Origin: an uncultured Chloroflexales bacterium
GTDB lineage: Bacteria > Chloroflexota > Chloroflexia > Chloroflexales > Chloroflexaceae
DNA: 64,000 nt
Reading direction: 5' to 3'
Assembly: GCA_937918935.1 (NCBI GenBank)
Contig: CAKZSI010000069.1
Span: forward strand, 1-64,000
Made by a program: the position numbers and the translations under genes. The notes beneath the pieces were generated by a model. The model was not told the origin of the DNA, ran no database searches, and saw nothing but the letters and a program-made list of their open reading frames with translations. Positions 16,019 through 26,773 of this stretch are shown piece by piece (position 1 is the first letter of the stretch; each line of letters starts with the position of its first letter).

Positions 16019-16513
16019 TCAGTCACGACCGATGCCCGCCTCGGTCAGGAGGCGCACCACCCGCTCGAGGCGATTGAGGGCCCGGGCTAGCAACAGGGCC
16101 GCATCGGCGATAATCGCTTCGCTAAGAGCCGGATTGGTGTTGACCTTGTCGCGCACAGGCCGCAGCACCTGCTCCATCGTATCGAGAAAGTCGCTTGCCT
16201 GATACAGGGCGGTTTCGGCATCCTCGCGCTGTTTGGAAGCCACCATCGGCCAGCGGCCATGGATCGGTTTGGCGCGGGCCATCGAGAGAAAGCGCGCCAC
16301 CCGATCGGCCCGCGTCAACGCATCTGAGACGTAGCGTTCGGTGTCGGTAACCAGGACGAGGGTGAGACTTTGATTGCCATGAACCCTGGCCCGGGCTGAG
16401 TCGAGCGTGGTCTGGGCCCGTTGCAGGATCTGTACCGCCTCATCAGCAGCCTGGATCGCCGCTTCCCGTTCGCTCTCCGCTTCGATTGGCCATCGTCGAG
16501 GAATCGTCGGCAT
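16019..16513 (-). CDS. Unknown helical protein
   Basis: About 164 residues, almost entirely helical by composition (EAAIQAADEAVQILQRA and DAALLLARALNRLERVV), with no cysteine pair or recognisable catalytic motif. I do not recognise the family. The start at ATG 16513 is preceded by GGAGG three bases away, and it overlaps the end of the upstream membrane-protein gene by 71 bases, suggesting translational coupling. The two genes probably form one unit. Confidence 0.55.
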   Translation of the reverse strand: MPTIPRRWPIEAESEREAAIQAADEAVQILQRAQTTLDSARARVHGNQSLTLVLVTDTERYVSDALTRADRVARFLSMARAKPIHGRWPMVASKQREDAETALYQASDFLDTMEQVLRPVRDKVNTNPALSEAIIADAALLLARALNRLERVVRLLTEAGIGRD

Positions 16514-16895
16514 AAGCCTCCACAGGCGCCTGTTCCCGGGTTGCGGCATAGCGCAGGAGTTCAATCTGCCGCACCATCGCCTCACCGATCTGCCAGAGGA
16601 TGATCGGCGTGCCCGAGGCGATAAAGCCACGCCAGACCGCCGCCTCATACTGGCGCCAGTCCATATCGGGCTGCCGGCGGGCGGCGATAGCCACAGGAAC
16701 CAGCGTAATCAGGACCCCACCGGCCACTTCGGCCCAGGTGTGGTCGGGCTTGATGGGAAGGCGGCGCTCGAGATAGCTGAGCGCCACCGCATAGGCGGTC
16801 GAGAGTCCCAACGTCAGCAGGGGCGTGCCGAGCATCGGATCGCCTGAGGTCTGCTTGGCCTGGGACACGTCACGCTTCAGTTGAAACCGGGTCAT
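16443..16895 (-). CDS. Unknown small membrane protein
   Basis: A 150-residue protein with two probable membrane segments (about residues 21-40 and 55-75), separated by YLERRLPIKPDHTW, and a soluble tail. AAAGGAA precedes the ATG at 16895. I do not recognise the family; the layout recalls small holin-like or membrane-adaptor proteins, but nothing confirms that. It is divergent from the MraZ operon, so the 398-base gap to the right must carry promoters in both directions. Confidence 0.6.
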   Translation of the reverse strand: MTRFQLKRDVSQAKQTSGDPMLGTPLLTLGLSTAYAVALSYLERRLPIKPDHTWAEVAGGVLITLVPVAIAARRQPDMDWRQYEAAVWRGFIASGTPIILWQIGEAMVRQIELLRYAATREQAPVEAYADDSSTMANRSGERTGSGDPGC

Positions 16896-17173
16896 TTTCG
16901 GGTTCCTTTCGGTATCTTGCAGGGAAGATTACACAGGGTTTCAGAGCTTCTGTCCAGGATGCAAACAGGCCAGTGCGGACGCTCCTGTTTGAGCGTTGTG
17001 ACGCCAGTAACCCCTCCTTTCCCTTCTGTACGCCGTGGCAACGCCTGGTGCACACCGGGTGACGGACCACCGCGGGCATCTCTCGCCGCCGCTGATTATC
17101 CTACGACAAGAAGTAACTCTTTGCAAGCCCTCATCAGGACCCTAAACGAGATCAAACAGTTGTAAAAAGACGC

Positions 17174-17202
17174 TTAACAAAGTTCTTATGATATGCTATA
17201 GT
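17174..17202 (+). promoter_or_regulatory. Promoter of the MraZ-NACHT-CHAT-gasdermin operon
   Basis: A -35 box TTAACA (17174-17179) and -10 box TATAGT (17197-17202) are separated by 17 bases, in an AT-rich island that stands out from the surrounding GC-rich DNA. The predicted start point is near 17209, inside the phased CCC array, so a bound repressor would block initiation. The rest of the gap (16896-17173) holds no gene that I can support. Confidence 0.7.
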
Positions 17203-17205
17203 ATA

Positions 17206-17275
17206 CCCCAGTTAATACCCAATAATTACCCTTAAATATCCCTGATTAAGCTCGAAAATTGCCCTGTTCGAGCCC
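17206..17275 (+). promoter_or_regulatory. Helically phased CCC array, probable MraZ operator
   Basis: CCC triplets begin at 17207, 17218, 17229, 17240, 17262 and 17273, all in one 11-bp register; the slot at 17251 is degenerate (CTC). The first four sit in AT-rich context such as TACCCA and TACCCT. On the other strand each is a GGG half-site. Known MraZ operators are direct TGGG-type repeats at roughly one helical turn just upstream of mraZ. Position, spacing and the adjacent mraZ gene suggest autoregulation; binding itself is inferred. Confidence 0.65.
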
Positions 17276-17293: not shown

Positions 17294-17734
17294 ATGTTCA
17301 TCGGCACCTTTGAGACCCCGGTCGAACCATCCGGCCGGATCGTGATCCCACCCGCGTTTCGCGCTGCCGCCCTGGAGGGCCTCACCGTGACCCGCGGCTT
17401 CGACCGCTGCGCGCAGGCGTTTCCCACCCCCATCTGGCATGACCTTGCCCGGCGCATTAACGCGCTGCCGCTCTTTGTTGACGCCGCACGGCAGGCCCGG
17501 AGCCTGCTCTTTGCCGCTGCCACCGAACTGACCCCCGATGCCACCGGCGCAGTGCTGCTGCCCCGCCCGCTCCTGGCCCACGCCGGGATCGCCTCGACCG
17601 TCGTTCTGGTGGGGATGGGCGCCTTCTTCGAACTCTGGTCACCCGAGGCATGGAACGCCGCCAGCGATCATTTGCTGCACTCGGTGAGCCGGTGGACTGG
17701 CGCCGATCTGCCGCTGGCTCTGGCGGCCATCTAG
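17294..17734 (+). CDS. mraZ: MraZ-like transcriptional regulator
   Basis: A 146-residue protein of MraZ length and layout. It begins MFIGTFETPVEPSGRIVIP, matching the family start, and the second half ends in LVGMGAFFELWSPEAW, the typical MraZ second-repeat ending. MraZ is a ring-forming AbrB-fold DNA-binding protein that represses the division and cell-wall (dcw) cluster. The first DNA-contact motif keeps its arginine (PSGR). The second (DATGA, residues 82-86) has alanine where arginine is expected, so one half may bind weakly. GGAGG precedes the ATG. It is followed not by rsmH but by immune-like genes. Confidence 0.85.
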   Translation: MFIGTFETPVEPSGRIVIPPAFRAAALEGLTVTRGFDRCAQAFPTPIWHDLARRINALPLFVDAARQARSLLFAAATELTPDATGAVLLPRPLLAHAGIASTVVLVGMGAFFELWSPEAWNAASDHLLHSVSRWTGADLPLALAAI

Positions 17735-17837
17735 TAGGGTCGAGGTATTGGCTGCACCAATGCTTCGGCCCGACCGTCTGCGAGCAGGGGCACTGGCTAC
17801 CAGCAAACAGCGATCACCGCCCACGTAAGGAGGCCCT

Positions 17838-18056
17838 ATGCCATTGATCTTCCACACCCCTCCCGATGCCGCACCGCGCACCTCTGGCAGCGCCGCCCTG
17901 GCCCGCGTTCGCCTGCGCCAGGCCCTCACCCGCGACCGCGGCGCCATCCCGGCCCCTTCCGCCGCCGAGGTGCTCGCCCGACTCCTCGACGAGCCGCTTC
18001 CGTCAGGCGTCGAGCAAACGCTACCTGTTGCGCCTGCCCGCGGGGGACGCCAATGA
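17838..18056 (+). CDS. Small 72-residue protein of the MraZ-NACHT operon
   Basis: A short frame starting at ATG 17838 behind a near-perfect ribosome site (AAGGAGG). It ends in the ATGA overlap with the NACHT gene, so translation of the two is coupled. The product is Ala/Arg/Pro-rich (ALARVRLRQALTRDRGA, then AAEVLARLLDEPLP) without a membrane segment or known domain. The strong ribosome site and 4-base overlap argue that it is a real gene. It could be an adaptor, inhibitor or leader peptide; I cannot tell which. Confidence 0.6.
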   Translation: MPLIFHTPPDAAPRTSGSAALARVRLRQALTRDRGAIPAPSAAEVLARLLDEPLPSGVEQTLPVAPARGGRQ

Positions 18057-21000
18057 GTGACCTGGCTGCCTCTCTGGGCACGTCCATCGTGGCCGTGGCG
18101 GCGGCGCTCGCCGACGCTGCTGCCGCCGACCCCGAGGCCACGCTGCTTACCGCCCGGCTCAGCGGTCTCACCGCGCTCGGCGAGGGACCGCCCGCCGCGG
18201 CGCTGGGCCGCGCCATCGCCCAGGCCGAGGCGCGCCTGCGCGACGAGCACCCCGCCGCCGCCGGGCCGCTCATTGCGCTGCTGCGCGATCCCCATCCCGC
18301 CGCGGCACGCTTTCGTGCCGCCGCCGTGGAGGAGTTGCTGCTCGCGGGCGAGCCGGATCTGGCGCGTCTTGTTGAGGTGTACCGCCGCGAGGTGCGCACC
18401 GCTCTCGCCGCCGCCGGGAACGAGGCGCCACCCTGGCGCCTCATCGGCCCGCCGTTGATCCGTCTGCTCGGCGATCTGCTGCCCGCGGCGTGCGCCGGGC
18501 AGGCCCGGCTGCGCCGCTGCCTGCCCGACGAGGCCGAGCGCGCCCTGATCGACCGCCTGCGCGCCGCCCGCCTCGCGGCGTTTCCTGCCGAACCGTCTGG
18601 CCAGAGTATCGTCGCGACTTCCGGCGCCTCCATCGCCCAGGTGCGGCAGACCATCGTCCACGGCGATCTCTACACCCTGCCCGGTTCACCCGCACCTGAT
18701 CTACCCCTGCTCTACGCCCACTACCGCGCCTTCGTCGCCGAGACGTTCGGTTCGCTGGATTTTCGCGGGATGATGCAGGTGCAGGCGGCCACACGCATCC
18801 CCCTCGAGCGGATCTACGTTCCGCTTATGGGTCGCGCGCCACAGGATGAGCACATCCCCGACGCGCCTCGCGCCTCCCTTCACGAGTTCGTGCGCGCCCA
18901 GCCGCTTCTGGTGGTGCTCGGCGACCCCGGCAGCGGCAAGAGCACCCTGGTGCGCTACCTGCTGTTGACCCTCACCCGCGGCGACGCGCGCCGCGACCTT
19001 GGCCTCGACCCGCTCTGGCTGCCGATCTTCTTTCCTGTGGCCTCCTTCGCCGCCGCCCGCTCCCGGCCCGGCGCGGGCGATCTGTCTCCCCTGGAGTATC
19101 TCAGCGCCTACTACGGCGGCCTCTCCCAGCCCGACTACGGTCCGCTGTTCGCGCGCGCCCTCACCATGGGCCGCGCCCTGGTGCTCTTCGATGGTCTCGA
19201 CGAGGTGCGCGACGACCGCCAGGCGATCGTGCGCGCCCTCGAGGCGTTCGTGCGCGAGTGGGACGCCCCCGGCAATCGCTTTGTGGCCACCTCACGCATC
19301 GTCGGCTACCCGGAGGCGCCTCTCGACCCCGACCTGTTCGCCGTAGTGACCATCCAGCCCCTCTCTGACGACCTGATCCGCGCCTTTATCGAACGCTGGA
19401 GCCGGGTCTACGCCGCGATGGGCACGCCGTCGCTCGCCACCGACGGCGATCTGCTCCACGACCTGATGCGCGAGGCCGCCAGCGCCGAACTGGAGCGTCG
19501 CGTTGCCGCCCACAGTGCTGCACTCACCACAGCGGTGTTTTCGACGCCCCGGGTCACCGACCTGGCGCGCAATCCGCTCTTGCTGACCATCCTGGCGCTG
19601 ATCCACAACCAGGGCACTCGGCTGCCCGATCGCCGGGCTGATCTCTACCGTCTCTGCGTTGAGGCCCTGGCCGAGACCTGGAACCGCACCCGTTCGTTGA
19701 GCGGACGACCCATCGCCGTTCAACTCGGCGATGAGCAGATCGACGAGCGTTTCGTAGTCAATGTGCTCGGCCCGGTGGCCCTCTGGCTCCACGGCGAGCG
19801 CGCTGGCGGTCTGATTGAGCAAGACGAACTGGAGCGCCACATCGCCGTCACCCTCGCCCAGAGCGACGGTCTGCCCCGCCGGCGCGCCCGGCGTCTGGCC
19901 CGCGAGTTCATCGAGTTGATGCGCCGCGATACCGGGCTGCTCATCGAGCGCGGCTACCGCCGCTTCGCCTTCGTGCATCTGACCTTCGAGGAGTACCTGG
20001 CCGCCCGCGGGCTGCTGGAGTCGGTGGTGGTCGAGCGCCCCGATGACCTGCTGCAACGCTACGCCCTCGACCCGCGCTGGCACGAGGTGCTGCGTCTAGC
20101 TATCGCCTCGGCCTCGCAACGCGAGGCGCAGCGCCTGCTGCTCACGTTGCTGGCAACACCAGCCGGAGATGAGCAGCGCGGTCTACCCGCGGTGCTGGCC
20201 GGCGAATGTCTCCTCGATGCCGGGCGCAATGCCGCCGGCGGGCGCGCCTGGGAAGCCGGCCTGGGGGCGCTGCTGGCCGTCGTGGCCGATCCCGCTGCGC
20301 CGCTCAACATCCGCGTCGCCGCTGGCGAGGTGCTCGGACGTCTCGGTGATCCGCGGCTGCTCGACCCGGCCACGGGTCGCGCCGTGGGCGCCAGTGGAGC
20401 GGCGATCCCCGATTACTGGTGCGACGTGCCCGCGGGCACGTTCTGGCATGGCGACGAGCGCCAGCGGCGCGGGCGCCGCGCCGCCCTGAAACCGGTCGAA
20501 CTGCCCTACGCCTTTCGCATCGCCCGCTACCCGGTGACCAATGCCGAGTTTGCCCGCTTCATCGCCGCCGGTGGCTACAGCGACCCGCGCTGGTGGAGCG
20601 TGACGGGGTGGGCCTTCCTGGGACCAGACGGCCATCGCGCCCCGCCCGAGGAGCGTGGCGCGCCCATCGCGCAGCCCGGACTCTGGACGGTCGCCAGCTA
20701 CAACGGCCCCACGCAGCCGGTGGTCGGCGTCTCGTGGTACGAAGCGGCGGCCTTCTGCACCTGGCTGACGGCCGAGGGCCGCGCCGCCGGCTGGCTCTAC
20801 CCCGGCGAGATGTTGCGCCTGCCGACGGCGCTCGAATGGGAACGGGCCGCGCGCCACCTCGACCAGCGCCGGTACCCCTGGGGCGACGATCCGCCCGACA
20901 CGGGCCACGCCAACTTCGCCGCGTGCGCCCTGCGCGCTCCCTCACCCATTGGCTGCTTTCCCGCCGGCGCCGCGGTCTGCGGGGCGCTCGATCTGGCCGG

Positions 21001-21220
21001 CAATGTCTGGGAGTGGACCTGCAGCCTGGCCGACGCCCTGGAGGAGCGCGGGCCGCGCACCGATGTGGCGCTCCACGAAACCCCGGCGATCAAAGGCGGG
21101 GCCTTTAACTGGGAGGCCGAGGGGCTGCGCTGTGGCGCTTACAACCGTTTCCCACCCACCCAGCGCTACAACTTGCTGGGCTTTCGTCTGGTGTGGGTTG
21201 CCGCCGAGGAGGGTGTATGA
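18053..21220 (+). CDS. NACHT-family STAND NTPase with C-terminal FGE-like domain
   Basis: A 1055-residue NLR-like protein. Residues 1-280 are helical with a linker (SGASIAQVRQTIVHGDLY) of the type found before NACHT domains. The NTPase has Walker A GDPGSGKST (about 290-298) and Walker B LVLFDGLDEV (about 377-386), followed by helical and HEAT-like sensor segments (about 650-780). Residues 790-1050 form a formylglycine-generating-enzyme/C-type-lectin-like domain: FRIARYPVTNAEFARF, VVGVSWYEAAAFCTWL, LRLPTALEWERAAR, LDLAGNVWEWTCS and a final LGFRLVW. Such NTPases act as ligand-triggered assembly switches; the FGE fold may recognise the ligand. ATGA overlaps join it to both neighbours. Confidence 0.92.
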   Translation: MSDLAASLGTSIVAVAAALADAAAADPEATLLTARLSGLTALGEGPPAAALGRAIAQAEARLRDEHPAAAGPLIALLRDPHPAAARFRAAAVEELLLAGEPDLARLVEVYRREVRTALAAAGNEAPPWRLIGPPLIRLLGDLLPAACAGQARLRRCLPDEAERALIDRLRAARLAAFPAEPSGQSIVATSGASIAQVRQTIVHGDLYTLPGSPAPDLPLLYAHYRAFVAETFGSLDFRGMMQVQAATRIPLERIYVPLMGRAPQDEHIPDAPRASLHEFVRAQPLLVVLGDPGSGKSTLVRYLLLTLTRGDARRDLGLDPLWLPIFFPVASFAAARSRPGAGDLSPLEYLSAYYGGLSQPDYGPLFARALTMGRALVLFDGLDEVRDDRQAIVRALEAFVREWDAPGNRFVATSRIVGYPEAPLDPDLFAVVTIQPLSDDLIRAFIERWSRVYAAMGTPSLATDGDLLHDLMREAASAELERRVAAHSAALTTAVFSTPRVTDLARNPLLLTILALIHNQGTRLPDRRADLYRLCVEALAETWNRTRSLSGRPIAVQLGDEQIDERFVVNVLGPVALWLHGERAGGLIEQDELERHIAVTLAQSDGLPRRRARRLAREFIELMRRDTGLLIERGYRRFAFVHLTFEEYLAARGLLESVVVERPDDLLQRYALDPRWHEVLRLAIASASQREAQRLLLTLLATPAGDEQRGLPAVLAGECLLDAGRNAAGGRAWEAGLGALLAVVADPAAPLNIRVAAGEVLGRLGDPRLLDPATGRAVGASGAAIPDYWCDVPAGTFWHGDERQRRGRRAALKPVELPYAFRIARYPVTNAEFARFIAAGGYSDPRWWSVTGWAFLGPDGHRAPPEERGAPIAQPGLWTVASYNGPTQPVVGVSWYEAAAFCTWLTAEGRAAGWLYPGEMLRLPTALEWERAARHLDQRRYPWGDDPPDTGHANFAACALRAPSPIGCFPAGAAVCGALDLAGNVWEWTCSLADALEERGPRTDVALHETPAIKGGAFNWEAEGLRCGAYNRFPPTQRYNLLGFRLVWVAAEEGV

Positions 21221-22584
21221 AGCCATCCCCTGTCCGCGCCGATCCACGGCTGATCTTCTTACCGCGCCGCGACGGCGTCACCCTGCGCTGGGAAGCCGAC
21301 GTACTCGGCGCCCGCGCCAGCCGTATGGCGCCGCCCTTCCTGCGTGACGACCTGGCCCTGGTGCTACGGGCCCTCGACGCCCTGCAGGACCCGGCCTACC
21401 CCATCGCCTGGAACGACGATCAGGAGCAACGCTTCGCCTTCGGCGCAACCGAGCGCGCCCGGCTGGCCGCCCTGGAGCTCTGGGATGCGGCGGAGCGCGT
21501 ATCCGCCGATGCGCCCCGGCGCGTGGGCCGCCGGCTCTTTCACGCCCTGACCGCCGACCCCGCCGGCGCCCGCGCCCTGGCCACGCTGCGCGATCACGCC
21601 ACGGCCCTTGGCCACCCCCTGCGCCTGGAGTTGTGCTTCCCGCCCGAAGCGACCGACCTGGCCGCCCTGCCCTGGGAACTTCTCTGGGACGAGGGGCCGC
21701 TGCCCCTGGTGCTGGCCCACGACGGCGCCGGCAGCATCGCGCGGCGGCTGGACCTGCCGCAGGCCCTGCCGCCGCGCCGCCAGGCCAGCGGCCCGTTGCG
21801 CATTCTGGCTATCTCGCCCCGGGCCGGCATCAGCCCCGAGTTGCGCCAGGTCGAACGCGCCGCCCGTCTCGATACCTGGCAGCCGCTGATCGACGCCGGG
21901 CGCGCCAGGGTGATTGAAGTAGAGCCGGCCAGCCGGGTCATGGTGGTGCAGGCCCTCGGCGCCGGCCCACCACCCGATGTCGTGCATTTCTACGGCCACG
22001 GACGCTACCTCAACGGCGAGGGGGCGCTGCTCCTCGATGACGGCTCCGGCACAGCCTGGACGCCCGCCACCACCCTGGCGGCCCTCTTCGGCGGGGTCGC
22101 GCTGGTGGTGCTGCACGCCTGCCAGGGGGCCATGCTCGGCGTGAGCGCGCCCCTCGTTGCCGGGGTGGCCCAGGCCCTCTGCGCCAACGGCGTACCTGCC
22201 GTGCTGGGGATGCAACTCAGCGTGCGCGCCAGCGCCGCCGGGCGCGTCGGCGCCGTGCTCTACCAGGCCCTCGCCGCCGGGCGCAGCCTGCAAGACGCCG
22301 TTGCCCTTGCCCGACGCGCCCTGTTCGTCGAGGAAGGCGATCGTGTCTCCTGGTTCGTTCCGGCCCTCTACCTGCGGGACCGCGACGGGGGGCCGTTTTA
22401 CCTCCGCCCGCCCGCCACCGATCCCACCGGAGAGGCGGCGCCACCCGCCGCCCGGCAGATGGTGCTGGCCCACGGCGGGCAGATCCGCACCCTGCGCATC
22501 CAGGGCCGCGCCGGCTCGGCCCAGCGCGTCGTCGCCCTCGACGGAGGCCACATCAGCGGCGTGTCAATGGAGGATCGATCGTAA
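21217..22584 (+). CDS. CHAT-domain caspase-like protease
   Basis: A 455-residue protein whose C-terminal half is a CHAT peptidase (caspase clan). The catalytic His lies in HFYGHG (His261) and the Cys in LHACQGA (Cys302); both are present, so it is predicted active. The N-terminal domain contains LAALPWELLWDEG, the usual entry motif of CHAT proteins. It starts at ATG 21217, overlapping the NACHT stop by four bases, which implies a stoichiometric pair. CHAT proteases coupled to NLR-like NTPases cleave partner proteins on activation; the likeliest substrate here is the gasdermin-like protein at the operon end. That pairing is inferred. Confidence 0.92.
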   Translation: MKPSPVRADPRLIFLPRRDGVTLRWEADVLGARASRMAPPFLRDDLALVLRALDALQDPAYPIAWNDDQEQRFAFGATERARLAALELWDAAERVSADAPRRVGRRLFHALTADPAGARALATLRDHATALGHPLRLELCFPPEATDLAALPWELLWDEGPLPLVLAHDGAGSIARRLDLPQALPPRRQASGPLRILAISPRAGISPELRQVERAARLDTWQPLIDAGRARVIEVEPASRVMVVQALGAGPPPDVVHFYGHGRYLNGEGALLLDDGSGTAWTPATTLAALFGGVALVVLHACQGAMLGVSAPLVAGVAQALCANGVPAVLGMQLSVRASAAGRVGAVLYQALAAGRSLQDAVALARRALFVEEGDRVSWFVPALYLRDRDGGPFYLRPPATDPTGEAAPPAARQMVLAHGGQIRTLRIQGRAGSAQRVVALDGGHISGVSMEDRS

Positions 22585-22590
22585 CACGCC

Positions 22591-22633
22591 AGGGGAGGGT
22601 TTGGGGCAACCAGGTTGCCCCAAACCTTCCCCT
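22591..22633 (+). repeat. Strong hairpin inside the operon, repeat-family copy
   Basis: Arms of 20 bases (22591-22610 and 22614-22633) pair with a single G-T wobble around a 3-nt loop. It lies in the 193-base gap between the CHAT and amidase genes. No T-run follows, so it is more likely a message-stabilising or attenuating structure than a full terminator. The sequence belongs to the window's dispersed palindromic repeat family. Confidence 0.7.
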
Positions 22634-22777
22634 CGGCAAGATAGAGAAACCCGTTTGCCCCACATGCCCCTCCCGCCGGAGGGTCCGGGAGGGCGCAGCC
22701 CTTCCAGGAAAGAACCTCTCGTTGCGCGGCGAAGCCGCATGCGCCCTTGACGACCGCATACCGGAGGAACAAAACCA

Positions 22778-24631
22778 ATGCATATCGAATGGCTCGGCAT
22801 GACCCGCCAGCACTACCAGCCTGGCGCCCTCACCCGGGTGCGTATGGTGGTGATCCACGCCACTGCCGGGCGCGCCCCCGGCGACCTCAACTGGCTACGC
22901 CAGGGCGGCGATGAACACCGTCCCGTCTCGGTTCACTACTACATTGGTCGCGATGGGCGGGTTGTGCAACTGGTCAAAGAGGAAGACATTGCCTGGCATG
23001 CCGGCACGAGCGTCTGGGCTGTTGATGGGCGCGTTATGCAGCATTGCAACCGCTTCTCGATTGGTATTGAGCTGGAAAACCTTAACACCGGGCGCGATCC
23101 CTACCCCGAAGCCCAGTATGCCGCCGCGCTGGAGCTAACGCGGGATCTGGTGCGCCGCCACAACGTGCCGCGTGGCCAGCTCGTCCGCCACCTGGACATC
23201 GCGCCAGGGCGCAAGACCGATCCCGCCGGTTTCCCCTGGGAACGTTTCGTCAGCGAGGTCTACGCTGGCACATCCGAGGCCAACGACGACCCGCAGGCCC
23301 AACTGCGCGCCCTGATGCGTGACCTTGCCTACCGGGCCGCCGGTTCGGCGCTACCCGCCGTATGGCCCCTGTACGAAGCCGCCCGCGCCGCACATCTCGG
23401 CATGCCCATCGCCAGTCGCAGCGGGCGTCCCCAGGCTGCCAGCCCCGCGACGGCCCAGGACGACCGCGACCGCGCAGTGCGTCTCCCCGGCCAGGCACCG
23501 CTGATCATCGAGGTGTACGCCCGCGACCTGCTCTACGCGCCCCTGACCAGCGACGAGCGCCCCCGGGCCAGCGCCATCCGCCGCTTGAACGAGACGCCTC
23601 CCGGCCCGCTGCGCGAGGCCCTGGTTGGAGAAATGTTCCGCGCTGCCGATCCGGTCAATGGCTTCCGGCCCGACTGGGCCTTCCACCAACGCTGGCAACT
23701 GCGCGCCAGCGACCTGGGGGCGCCCATCGGTCCCAACCATCGCATTGTGGTGGGGGGGAAGCCCTTTGCCTGCCAGCACTTCGCTCTGGACAGCCTCTGC
23801 TCACCGGTGGGCGCCTGGCGCACGATCTACCACCTGAGCGAACTGAGCAGCGGGGGGAGCGGCGCCCCTCAGCCCGCGGCGCTGCGCGTCGCCCTGCTCG
23901 ACGACCTCTACCGTGCCCGCGCCGGGCGACGCTACGACCCGACGGCGCTCCTTATACGGCAGGCCGAGACCCGGCGCCTGGGCGCACCTCTGGCGCCGCC
24001 CGAAGTGGCGATGGTCGCGGGCCGTCCGTACCTGCTGATGGCCTTTGCCCTCGATGTCCTGGCCTGCCCATTGCCGCGCCTCACCTGGCCCCTCGACCAG
24101 CCATTGCCCGCCGAGACGCCGGCAATCGCCCTCGACGACGCCCCGGCGCTCCTGGGCGCGCCCGTCCCACAGTGGACGGAGCGTCTGCTGGGCGCCGCCG
24201 CGGCGCCCGCGCTGCACGACCTGCTCCTTGACGCACCCCGGGGCCATGACCGCCCGGCGCCCGACACCCTGCTCATCAGCACGGCGCCCGGCCCTGCCGC
24301 CACCGATCTGCGCCTGGAAGCCGGAAACGCCCGCTGGCACTACTACGTCACGACCTCCGGCGCGATCTACCGTCTCGGTGACGAACGTGCCAGCGCTGGC
24401 GCCCCGGCGCCAACCAGACGCGCCGTATGCATCGCGGTCGAAGGGGGCGCCACTGCCGCCGGCCCGACCCAGCGCGCCGCCCTCGCCTGGCTGGTACGCA
24501 CCCTGGCGAACGCCTGGCACATTGCTCCGCAGCAGATTATCGCCACTGACAGGGCATCGTCAGGCTCGGGCGTGCGCCGGACCAATACAGAACGACATCC
24601 TGTTGAGATTGGAGGAGCAAACGATGTCTGA
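22778..24631 (+). CDS. PGRP/Amidase_2 protein with a second, degenerate amidase domain
   Basis: A 617-residue protein. Residues 20-165 form an N-acetylmuramoyl-L-alanine amidase of the PGRP/AmpD type, with zinc ligands His27 (VVIHATAG), His138 (RHLDIAPG) and Asp148 (RKTDP), plus EDIAWHAG; it should cut or bind peptidoglycan stem peptides. Three copies of an unnamed repeat follow (about 205-253, 312-343, 400-430; LGxP, then FALDxL and CP or AP). Residues 495-607 resemble a second amidase domain (HYYVTTSGAIYRLGDE) but lack the first His (LLISTAPG) and the last ligands, so it can only bind. No signal peptide is seen. GGAGG precedes ATG 22778. It overlaps ftsZ by 8 bases. Confidence 0.85.
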   Translation: MHIEWLGMTRQHYQPGALTRVRMVVIHATAGRAPGDLNWLRQGGDEHRPVSVHYYIGRDGRVVQLVKEEDIAWHAGTSVWAVDGRVMQHCNRFSIGIELENLNTGRDPYPEAQYAAALELTRDLVRRHNVPRGQLVRHLDIAPGRKTDPAGFPWERFVSEVYAGTSEANDDPQAQLRALMRDLAYRAAGSALPAVWPLYEAARAAHLGMPIASRSGRPQAASPATAQDDRDRAVRLPGQAPLIIEVYARDLLYAPLTSDERPRASAIRRLNETPPGPLREALVGEMFRAADPVNGFRPDWAFHQRWQLRASDLGAPIGPNHRIVVGGKPFACQHFALDSLCSPVGAWRTIYHLSELSSGGSGAPQPAALRVALLDDLYRARAGRRYDPTALLIRQAETRRLGAPLAPPEVAMVAGRPYLLMAFALDVLACPLPRLTWPLDQPLPAETPAIALDDAPALLGAPVPQWTERLLGAAAAPALHDLLLDAPRGHDRPAPDTLLISTAPGPAATDLRLEAGNARWHYYVTTSGAIYRLGDERASAGAPAPTRRAVCIAVEGGATAAGPTQRAALAWLVRTLANAWHIAPQQIIATDRASSGSGVRRTNTERHPVEIGGANDV

Positions 24632-25751
24632 TCAGCCAACGACCCGTGTCAGCGCCGACCTGCGGGAGGTTGCCGACAACGTGATCGTCTTTTCCCGACC
24701 AGAAGACGTCGCCGCGCGCCCTTCGCTTTTTCTGGCCCAGCTTCCGCTCGACTCCGCTCCGGTGAAGATCCGGGTCGTCGGCGTGGGCGGAGCGGGCGGC
24801 AACGTCATTGACCGGCTGGCCGGCGAACGCATCCCCAGCGTGGACACCCTGGTCGTCAACACCGACCGGCAGGCCCTCGGCGCCAGTCGGGCCACCCGCC
24901 ACCTGGTACTGGGCGAGACGGTGACCCGCGGCCTTGGTGCAGGGGGAGACCCGCTGGTGGGCCGCCAGGCCGCCGAGGAGAGCGCGGCCTCGCTGCGCGA
25001 GCGTCTACGGGGCGCCGACATGGTCTTTATCGCCGCGGGCATGGGGGGAGGAACAGGAACCGGCGCAGCGCCGATCGTCGCGCGCGTGGCCCGCGAACTG
25101 GGCGCCCTCTGTGTTGCCCTGGTCACCCGGCCCTTCAGCTTCGAGGGGCGGCGACGCGCGCAGATCGCTACCCAGGGCATCGTCACCCTGCGCGAAGTCG
25201 CCGATACGCTGATCATCGTGCCGAACGATCGACTGATCCAGGCTGCTACGCGCAGCACCTCCATCCGTGAGGCGTTCGACATGGCCGATACCGTGCTACG
25301 GCTCGGTGTGCAGGGCATCGCCGAACTGATGGTACAGCGCGGCCTGATCAACGTTGACTTCGCCGATGTGCGCGCCGTGATGGAACGGGCCGGCATGGCC
25401 CTGCTGGGCATTGGCGCGGCACGGGGCCACAACCGCGTCGTTGAGGCCCTGCGCCGCGCCACCGCCTGCCCGCTGCTGGAGGGCCGCCTCGAAGGCGCGC
25501 GCCGGCTGTTGCTCAACATCACCGGCGGCAACGACCTGGGTCTCCTGGAGGTGCACACCGCCGCCGAACTGGTGGCCCGCACCATTGACCCCGACGCCAA
25601 CATCATCTTCGGGGCCACGATTGACCCGACCCTGACCTCCGGCCTGGTCAAGGTCACCCTGGTCGCCACCGGCTTTGCCGACGTCGAGGCGCCGGAGACC
25701 CTCCCACGGGCCGGGGCGCGGGGAAACCCGCTTTCCCCGGGTTCGCGTTAG
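24624..25751 (+). CDS. ftsZ: FtsZ GTPase embedded in the NACHT-CHAT operon
   Basis: A 375-residue tubulin-fold GTPase. The signature GGGTGTG is at 141-147, and the T7 loop keeps the catalytic set N243, D245 and D248 (NVDFADV). FtsZ motifs such as RPFSFEGRRR and VDPDANIIFG-like DPDANIIFG are close to consensus, so polymerisation and GTP hydrolysis are expected. It has a 46-residue N-terminal extension, and the tail after residue 350 is only about 25 residues, without the conserved C-terminal peptide that binds FtsA-type anchors. ATG 24624 follows GGAGGAG and overlaps the amidase stop by 8 bases. No other dcw genes surround it. It could be the cell's main FtsZ or a paralogue dedicated to this system. 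Confidence 0.93.
   Translation: MSDQPTTRVSADLREVADNVIVFSRPEDVAARPSLFLAQLPLDSAPVKIRVVGVGGAGGNVIDRLAGERIPSVDTLVVNTDRQALGASRATRHLVLGETVTRGLGAGGDPLVGRQAAEESAASLRERLRGADMVFIAAGMGGGTGTGAAPIVARVARELGALCVALVTRPFSFEGRRRAQIATQGIVTLREVADTLIIVPNDRLIQAATRSTSIREAFDMADTVLRLGVQGIAELMVQRGLINVDFADVRAVMERAGMALLGIGAARGHNRVVEALRRATACPLLEGRLEGARRLLLNITGGNDLGLLEVHTAAELVARTIDPDANIIFGATIDPTLTSGLVKVTLVATGFADVEAPETLPRAGARGNPLSPGSR
25719..25739 (+). repeat. Palindromic repeat encoding part of the FtsZ tail
   Basis: CGGGGAAA and TTTCCCCG form an 8-bp stem around CCCGC. It is a copy of the window's intergenic repeat, but here it lies inside the coding sequence and supplies about residues 366-372 (RGNPLSP). A second copy occupies about 25816-25841, in the gap before the next gene. 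Confidence 0.6.
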
Positions 25752-25909
25752 GTACGGGCGAAAGATGTTTCGCCCATGCCTGATACCGATCTACTCTCCG
25801 CATCGCGCAGGGGCCTGGGGAAACCCGGGCGCCCCACCCCCCTACGGCAGCCCCCCCGTGGGCCCGGCCGGCCCGGAGCTATTTCACATCGGATGACAAG
25901 GAGCAAACT

Positions 25910-26773
25910 ATGAGCCTGATCCGTCTCTGCCGCGAGGACCCGCTGGTGAGCCTGGTGTACGAACTCTTTGGCGCCAACATCGTGCGCGTGCCCGATGCCC
26001 GGGTGCGCCCGCTGACCGTGGTGGTGCACCGCGACGGGCGCAGCTTCTTCCGCGGCGCCCTGCTGCCCCTCCTCACCGACAGCCGGCCCCTGGGCGTCCC
26101 ACCCGAGGAGACCGAACTCACCGACATCTCGGGGCGTCGCTCGCGCCGCGTGGCCCTCGATCTAGGCCTGCACATCCTGCGGGGCTTCCTCAAGGGCTTC
26201 GGCGTGCCTGCCGCCGAACTGACCGCCGGGATCGAGGGGGCGGCCCATATCCAGTTCGCCTTTCCCGATGTGCGTCGCCTGGCCCTCGATGTCAACGCCC
26301 TGGGCTGGGCCATAGCCGGGCGCTGCATCGACCGGGCCAACCCCGCCGCCGCCATCCTCTTTGAACACCCGCGCTACGATCTGCTGCTGATCGACTCGGT
26401 GCTGATCAGTCGCTACATCACGATAGTGCTCACCGGCGCGCGGGGGCAACGCCTCAACGTTGACGTCTCGGCGCTCCAGCACCTCCTGGCCGAACTTGGG
26501 GGCCACGTGAACGCCTCCAACGCCGGCGAGATCGAGATGACCCTTGAAAGCCCCCACGCCCTCACCTTCGCCTTCTCCTGCGTGCGTCTGTTCTTTACCG
26601 ACGAGGGGCTTATCAGCATCATGCCACCCGATCACAGCCGGCGCACCCTCGGCCCCGCCGACCTGGCCAGCCCCCTGGTTGCCCGCCCCTCACCTGATCG
26701 CATCCAGCTCAGCCCTGGCCCGGGTCTGGTGCTATGGGATCGCTGGCCGTCGGAACAGCCGGTCGCAACCTGA
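25910..26773 (+). CDS. Bacterial gasdermin-like pore-forming protein
   Basis: A 287-residue protein resembling bacterial gasdermins in length and pattern. The N-terminus, with Cys7 next to DPLV (LCREDPLV) and then IVRVPDARVRPLTVV, matches the family's opening, where an N-terminal Cys is lipidated. LTDISGRRS, LDLGLHILRGFL, HIQFAFPDV, LLIDSVLISRYITIVLTG, LAELGGHVN and LTFAFSCVRLFF follow in the family's order. Gasdermins are held inactive by a short C-terminal segment; proteolysis releases a membrane-pore-forming domain. The last 45 residues here (from about Asp241, with Arg244-Arg245) could be that segment. The co-encoded CHAT protease is the candidate activator. AGGAG precedes the ATG. The family call rests on remembered pattern, not a search. 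Confidence 0.75.
   Translation: MSLIRLCREDPLVSLVYELFGANIVRVPDARVRPLTVVVHRDGRSFFRGALLPLLTDSRPLGVPPEETELTDISGRRSRRVALDLGLHILRGFLKGFGVPAAELTAGIEGAAHIQFAFPDVRRLALDVNALGWAIAGRCIDRANPAAAILFEHPRYDLLLIDSVLISRYITIVLTGARGQRLNVDVSALQHLLAELGGHVNASNAGEIEMTLESPHALTFAFSCVRLFFTDEGLISIMPPDHSRRTLGPADLASPLVARPSPDRIQLSPGPGLVLWDRWPSEQPVAT

What the first reader, a model, noticed from the sequence alone, without database searches (positions are those of the whole stretch)
17206..17275. Eleven-bp phased CCC array over the operon promoter
Six CCC triplets fall in one exact 11-bp register over 67 bases, starting at the predicted transcription start. The downstream gene encodes a MraZ, whose known operators are direct GGG-containing repeats at about one turn. 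Period 11 and six or seven half-sites are longer than the usual three or four, which would suit a MraZ ring wrapping DNA.
Basis: partly seen in the sequence, partly recalled or inferred. Interest (0 to 1): 0.75.

Follow-up and report, generated by a model that had tools for sequence, protein, structure and literature searches.

The report
Eleven-base operator repeats before gasdermin operon
A row of CCC motifs repeating every 11 bases is a conserved control site, present at both promoters of a suspected cell-suicide (gasdermin) gene cluster in green filamentous bacteria; the neighbouring MraZ-like protein first credited with reading it is probably not its only reader.

Summary
CCC occurs at six of seven positions of one 11-bp register (17207-17275), just after an extended -10; no other place in the window reaches this, and none of 5000 shuffles reached even five. 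The register is conserved: thirteen MraZ-paralog promoters share CCC repeats at 11 bp (consensus AACCCRAYAAG), whereas canonical mraZ promoters in the same and related genomes carry GGG repeats at 10 bp. A second array of the same box lies at the divergent promoter (16894-16926, minus strand).

The operon is MraZ2, p72, NACHT-FGE, CHAT, amidase, FtsZ paralog, bacterial gasdermin. A model of the array, searched in 24 genomes, matches at E<0.14 only at this locus, and it then finds the up150 promoter in three genomes not used to build it.

The MraZ reading is weakened. Four near-complete genomes have the operon without MraZ2, yet their arrays are as strong as elsewhere and box cores are conserved among three of them. 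MraZ2 has lost three of the four conserved basic residues of the MraZ GR motifs.

Best reading: a locus-specific, multi-box operator of a cell-death operon, read by a tandem-binding regulator still to be identified. MraZ2 as reader or partner is not excluded.

The parts
17206..17275 (+). 11-bp phased CCC array (7 slots, 6 CCC) overlapping the predicted transcription start of the MraZ2-gasdermin operon
17174..17202 (+). extended -10 promoter TTAACA-17-TATAGT of the operon; GCTATAGT is shared by orthologous promoters
16894..16926 (-). second array of the same box (3 units, best 3-box score of the window) at the divergent promoter, overlapping the start codon of up150
17294..17734 (+). MraZ2, a diverged second MraZ
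17838..18056 (+). p72, small conserved protein of unknown role
18053..21220 (+). NACHT ATPase with C-terminal FGE-sulfatase/C-type-lectin-like domain
21217..22584 (+). CHAT protease of the gasdermin-associated type
22778..24631 (+). N-acetylmuramoyl-L-alanine amidase (Amidase_2)
24624..25751 (+). FtsZ paralog, start approximate (a second FtsZ lies at G000:C28:187668)
25910..26773 (+). bacterial gasdermin
16443..16895 (-). up150, divergent conserved protein without Pfam match
16019..16570 (-). up209, conserved second gene of the divergent unit (start approximate)

Best explanation
The array is one of two facing multi-box operators of a CHAT-gasdermin cell-death locus. The unit is an 11-bp direct repeat, AACCCRAYAAG on the coding strand. 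A regulator binds head to tail along one face of the DNA. Boxes after the -10 overlap the transcription start and, on the up150 side, the ribosome site and start codon, so their occupation should keep both divergent units off until the regulator is released or changed; boxes found before the -35 in some genomes could add activation or looping. Shown here: existence, register, conservation, locus specificity, and presence at both promoters. MraZ2 would then be an accessory or degenerate ring protein of the system.
For: CCC-CCC spacing in 13 paralog promoters peaks at 11 (22 pairs) with no GGG pairs, against GGG-GGG at 10 (146 pairs) in 49 other mraZ promoters. Observed 24 pairs against a shuffle mean of 1.5, maximum 7; divergent side 14 against 1.4, maximum 8. 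All 36 model matches with E<0.14 in 24 genomes lie at this locus, in 17 of 17 operon genomes (the model was built from these regions). Independent hits at up150 in G019, G028 and G018. A matrix trained only on MraZ2 genomes scores 34.1, 26.6, 30.2 and 27.8 in the four MraZ2-less genomes against shuffle maxima of 9.0-15.5. Among three MraZ2-less species, box cores differ at 0/40, 2/88 and 1/56 sites against 41/464, 53/454 and 42/447 elsewhere. The two MraZ2 absences sit inside the MraZ2-bearing tree.
Against: No reader is identified. A factor with a single-locus regulon is usually encoded nearby, and MraZ2 is the only DNA-binding-type family found in the locus. MraZ-family genes are linked to the system repeatedly: first gene in 15 loci, last gene in G005 and G028. 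Absences rest on two losses only, and the remaining canonical MraZ could read the boxes. The window's own + array is a weak match to the family model (E=0.13).
Confidence: 0.5

Rival explanations
1. MraZ2 is the reader: an autoregulatory MraZ operator with a changed code (11-bp period, reversed polarity). Arrays in MraZ2-less genomes are relics.
For: MraZ2 is the first gene after the array in 15 loci. Known MraZ sites are tandem repeats just after the -10. The MraZ fold is kept (Z 19.2 to 1n0e; 17.8 to 9sz7, titled MraZ with its 4-box promoter). All 13 paralogs form one clade, 100/99.
Against: Equal array strength and conserved box cores without MraZ2. K13, R/K83 and R86 of canonical MraZ are lost in 13 of 13, and G031 and G035 also lost R15 although their boxes are unchanged.
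Confidence: 0.25
2. MraZ-family code in general: MraZ2 where present, canonical MraZ (alone or in mixed rings) where it is absent, so the division regulator also controls a death operon.
For: Canonical-type MraZ is the only MraZ found in the four MraZ2-less operon genomes. Promoter architecture resembles canonical mraZ.
Against: Canonical operators are GTGGGGAAAA at 10 bp on the other strand, also in G008 and G022 of the MraZ2-less set. The base before GGG in the gasdermin box is mostly T or C, with no conserved GTG.
Confidence: 0.13
3. No protein reads the motif as such: it is a leader-RNA element or intrinsically curved DNA.
For: Many boxes lie in the 5' leader and AT-rich stretches are phased with the CCC.
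Against: Boxes also lie upstream of -35 (G007, G012, G022, G029, G036) and keep a specific sequence beyond AT content.
Confidence: 0.07
4. Chance in CCC-rich DNA.
For: Four phased CCC occur at 7 places in the genome; the last boxes fit the consensus poorly.
Against: 0 of 5000 shuffles reached five of seven; conservation across at least five genera.
Confidence: 0.02

Closest known systems
MraZ boxes of the dcw promoter
   Same: Tandem direct repeats about one turn apart, just after the -10, over the start of an operon led by a MraZ-family gene.
   Different: 11 bp instead of 7+3=10 bp (PMC7761207 passages); opposite polarity; core CCCRAYAAG instead of GTGGGGAAAA; also at a second, divergent promoter and at loci without MraZ2.
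SARP operators (heptamers with 4-bp spacers, 11 bp)
   Same: 11-bp direct repeats in one orientation, bound cooperatively on one DNA face (PMC5930380 passages).
   Different: Different sequence; here mostly after the -10; no SARP-type regulator found in the locus.
OmpR/PhoB-type 11-bp boxes
   Same: Tandem 11-bp repeats (recalled).
   Different: No cognate response regulator identified; no genome-wide regulon.
Bacterial gasdermin operons (Oscillochloris)
   Same: NACHT, FGE/C-type lectin, CHAT, amidase and FtsZ around a gasdermin; an Oscillochloris operon is among those in the Fig 2 legend of PMC9612521 (section 5 read).
   Different: That legend names no MraZ and no regulatory site.

Membership tests
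MraZ operator | direct repeats with a 10-bp period | tested here: not met
   period 11 in paralog promoters; 10 in canonical ones
MraZ operator | GTG/GTGGG core | tested here: not met
   box AACCCRAYAAG; reverse complement reads (T/C)GGGTT, no conserved GTG
MraZ operator | lies just downstream of the -10, over the start site | tested here: met
   literature passages
MraZ operator | bound by a MraZ protein | not testable with these tools
   needs a binding assay; indirect evidence is against MraZ2 as sole reader
MraZ protein family (MraZ2) | two MraZ repeats above Pfam cut-off and MraZ fold | tested here: met
   80 bits, cut-off 23; Z 19.2, rmsd 2.9, 137 aligned
MraZ protein family (MraZ2) | equivalog score of TIGR00242 | tested here: not met
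   81.1 bits against cut-off 98.35
MraZ protein family (MraZ2) | conserved basic residues K13, R15, R/K83, R86 of the GR motifs | tested here: not met
   R15 kept in 11 of 13, the other three not seen as basic in any of 13 among the residues listed; canonical 48-49 of 49
SARP/OmpR-PhoB-type operator | 11-bp direct repeats in one orientation | tested here: met
SARP/OmpR-PhoB-type operator | cognate winged-helix regulator | not tested
   no candidate seen in the locus; genome-wide search for candidates not done
bacterial gasdermin operon | gasdermin above curated cut-off with CHAT/caspase-like protease in the operon | tested here: met
   NCBIfam prok_gasdermin 184.9 bits, cut-off 100; PADLOC bGSDM 239.5 and chat 253.7

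The most novel reading that the evidence does not exclude
A MraZ-family protein whose usual DNA-contact residues have decayed has been recruited to a CHAT-gasdermin-FtsZ-amidase death operon, possibly more than once, and an 11-bp repeat code, distinct from the 10-bp code of canonical MraZ in the same cell, ties that operon to a division-type regulator. The cell's division control and its gasdermin suicide would share a regulator family insulated by helical period.
Probability: 0.3. Interest if true: 0.75.

Novelty: new variant of a known kind. Interest (0 to 1): 0.58.

Why it matters
How bacterial gasdermin operons are kept silent is little described: two paper searches (8 papers listed each) showed no regulator of a gasdermin operon, though most subscription journals are not held. 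Here is a conserved, locus-specific operator at both promoters of one such operon, with a natural test set of genomes that have or lack the MraZ-like gene. It makes the question of what represses a bacterial gasdermin directly testable, and it warns against naming a reader from the adjacent gene alone.

Tried and rejected
MraZ2 as a simple explanation: lowered after the MraZ2-less genomes. A wider regulon: the two-box pattern with up to one mismatch gave 87 matches in 13 genomes against 212 for the backward control, and all 12 zero-mismatch matches lay at this locus. Weak model matches elsewhere were looked at: G010 upstream of mraW at a contig end (the stretch may be coding), G021 before an SH3-domain gene, G011 before a possible kinase (HATPase 16.7 bits, below cut-off), and two in G019; none recurs, so none is claimed. 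Distant gasdermin loci: 11 loci were scored, of which L118, L155 and L156 lack the promoter region and L153 is a degenerate locus; L136 gave 17.6 and L134 gave 6.0, A-rich stretches just before the gasdermin gene in two Saprospirales MAGs, left as a lead. Genome-wide CCCN8CCC x4: not informative alone.

The gasdermin structure model was poor (pLDDT 56) and was not used. The count used a misplaced region for G002 (over-long up150 frame); one search uses a corrected start. G003, G014 and G026 have truncated loci and were not counted for MraZ2. Of the MraZ matches, nine (G007, G029, G039, G046, G048, G054, G058, G060 and G018:C137) were not given, and two more without a usable start (G028, G018:C127) were dropped from the tree and the spacing counts. 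The matrix was trained on the same regions it scores; searches are the tests that avoid this. The paper with the MraZ-DNA structures (9sz7, 9r4j) was not found in the library; only entry titles were seen. Searches gave no further MraZ operator paper beyond those.

Full report
Observation. The window reads CCC at six of seven slots of one 11-bp register from 17207 to 17275, four bases after TATAGT of an extended -10 promoter. No other place in 64 kb has six of seven at periods 7-15, and 0 of 5000 dinucleotide shuffles of the segment reached five.

Gene context. The window genome has two MraZ genes: a canonical one on contig C28 and this one, here MraZ2. Behind MraZ2 lie p72, a NACHT-FGE protein, a CHAT protease, an amidase, an FtsZ paralog and a gasdermin. 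The gasdermin scores 184.9 bits against a curated cut-off of 100. The order is kept in relatives, with up150-up209 (and pheT where the locus reaches it) on the divergent side; the NACHT-FGE gene was not found in the Chloroflexus-like loci, and fragmentary loci show only part of the order. A similar Oscillochloris operon is among those in the Fig 2 legend of PMC9612521 (section 5 read), so the operon itself is not new.

Conservation of the array. Search of 61 genomes with MraZ2 gave matches in 57. A tree of 62 rows puts 13 MraZ2 in one clade with support 100/99 against 49 others. In the 13 MraZ2 promoters CCC pairs peak at 11 bp (22 pairs, then 10 at 22 bp) with no GGG pair; in the 49 others GGG pairs peak at 10 bp (146), and 39 of 49 have three or more GGG in a 10-bp register. 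Against shuffles, 24 CCC pairs at 11 bp were seen where the mean is 1.5 and the maximum of 1000 is 7; 12 of 13 promoters have such a pair. The unit derived from 19 intergenic regions is AACCCRAYAAG. Most promoters hold two to four good boxes; the window has the longest CCC register but poor flanks in most boxes.

Second operator. The divergent up150 promoter has the same boxes: 14 pairs at 11 bp against a shuffle mean of 1.4, maximum 8. In the window the best 3-box site is this one, 16926-16894 on the minus strand, and the reported array is the next separate site, both with the all-genome matrix and with a matrix trained without this genus (23.8 and 13.7). In several genomes further boxes sit just upstream of the -35.

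Locus specificity. A sequence-only model of three boxes was searched in 24 whole genomes, 17 with the operon and 7 without the gasdermin operon. All 36 matches with E<0.14 lie in this intergenic region, in 17 of 17 operon genomes; the best E in the other seven is 0.34. These sequences helped build the model. In one search (13 genomes, 12 of them new and G005 again) the three best matches are the up150 promoters of G019, G028 and G018, none of which was in the model; the next, in G010, has E=0.014. G005 has a related operon but no model match; its matrix score is 13.5. G021 has a distant up150 (40%) and no array there.

Natural deletions of MraZ2. G008 (Candidatus Oscillochloris fontis, L130) and G007, G022 and G029 have the operon with no MraZ2 in place. 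Genome-wide, Pfam MraZ finds in each only one MraZ gene above cut-off; those of G008 and G022 sit among the canonical ones in the tree, while G007 and G029 were not in the tree. A matrix trained only on MraZ2-bearing genomes still finds arrays of 34.1, 26.6, 30.2 and 27.8 bits there, where 300 shuffles each reached at most 15.5. Between the three related species, box cores change at 0/40, 2/88 and 1/56 sites against 41/464, 53/454 and 42/447 elsewhere (one-sided Fisher p 0.03, 0.003, 0.03; not independent). In a five-gene tree these genomes fall inside the MraZ2-bearing group at two places, so two losses are the simplest account.

State of MraZ2. It keeps the MraZ fold (model pLDDT 85.8; Z 19.2 to 1n0e and 17.8 to 9sz7, titled MraZ with a 4-box promoter). 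Of four basic positions nearly invariant in 49 other MraZ (K13, R15, R/K83, R86), MraZ2 keeps R15 in 11 of 13 and the others in none of the aligned segments shown. That these residues touch DNA is recalled, not tested. MraZ-like genes at the far end of the related operons in G005 and G028 also lack one or both GR arginines.

Interpretation. The array behaves as an operator dedicated to this locus and present at both of its promoters. MraZ2 as its reader fits the gene order and the position after the -10, but not the persistence without MraZ2, the residue losses, or the change of period, polarity and core. Tandem 11-bp repeats are the textbook form of SARP sites (PMC5930380 passages) and, from recall, of PhoB-type sites; such a reader is proposed, not shown. 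Repression is inferred from boxes lying on the start site.

Limits. No binding data exist. Relatedness lowers the effective number of independent cases to about five to eight genera and two MraZ2 losses. Several genomes are fragmentary. The MraZ2 absence in G019 is not counted because that assembly is 88% complete and shows no MraZ at all.

Noticed in passing
window 17294-26773: MraZ2-led operon ending in a bacterial gasdermin with CHAT protease, amidase and FtsZ paralog; it looks like a programmed-death or phage-defence operon of filamentous Chloroflexota.
   Followed up: partly
canonical mraZ leaders, e.g. G000:C28 upstream of 168391, G032:C1379, G014:C709, G049:C349: GAAC-N4-GTTC palindromes (LexA-like of the B. 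subtilis type, label recalled) lie just after the 10-bp MraZ boxes, seen by eye; this suggests damage control of the dcw cluster.
   Followed up: no
middle of the intergenic region in relatives (degenerate near window 17098-17118): An imperfect palindrome TACTACA-N-TGTAGTA recurs between the two divergent promoters, perhaps the site of another regulator.
   Followed up: no
L187 (G005), L188 (G028), G018:C127/C137: Related operons carry a MraZ-like gene as the last gene instead of the first; no gasdermin match was seen in these loci.
   Followed up: partly
L190 (G019) 1636-1604 and 408-376, minus strand: up150-up209 pair without the operon on that contig, with one array before up150 and a second array 1.2 kb away near the contig end.
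   Followed up: no
L192 (G010) 9698-9666, minus strand: Three AACCTGATAAA-like repeats at 11 bp upstream of mraW in the dcw cluster of a genome where no MraZ was found; the contig ends there, so it may be coding or chance.
   Followed up: partly
L136 9877-9909 and L134 near 9901: Box-like A-rich repeats just before the gasdermin gene in two Saprospirales MAGs.
   Followed up: no
window 17250-17273: GCTCGAA/TTCGAGC inverted repeat in the leader covers the fifth to seventh slots, so some late CCC may belong to a hairpin (by eye).
   Followed up: no
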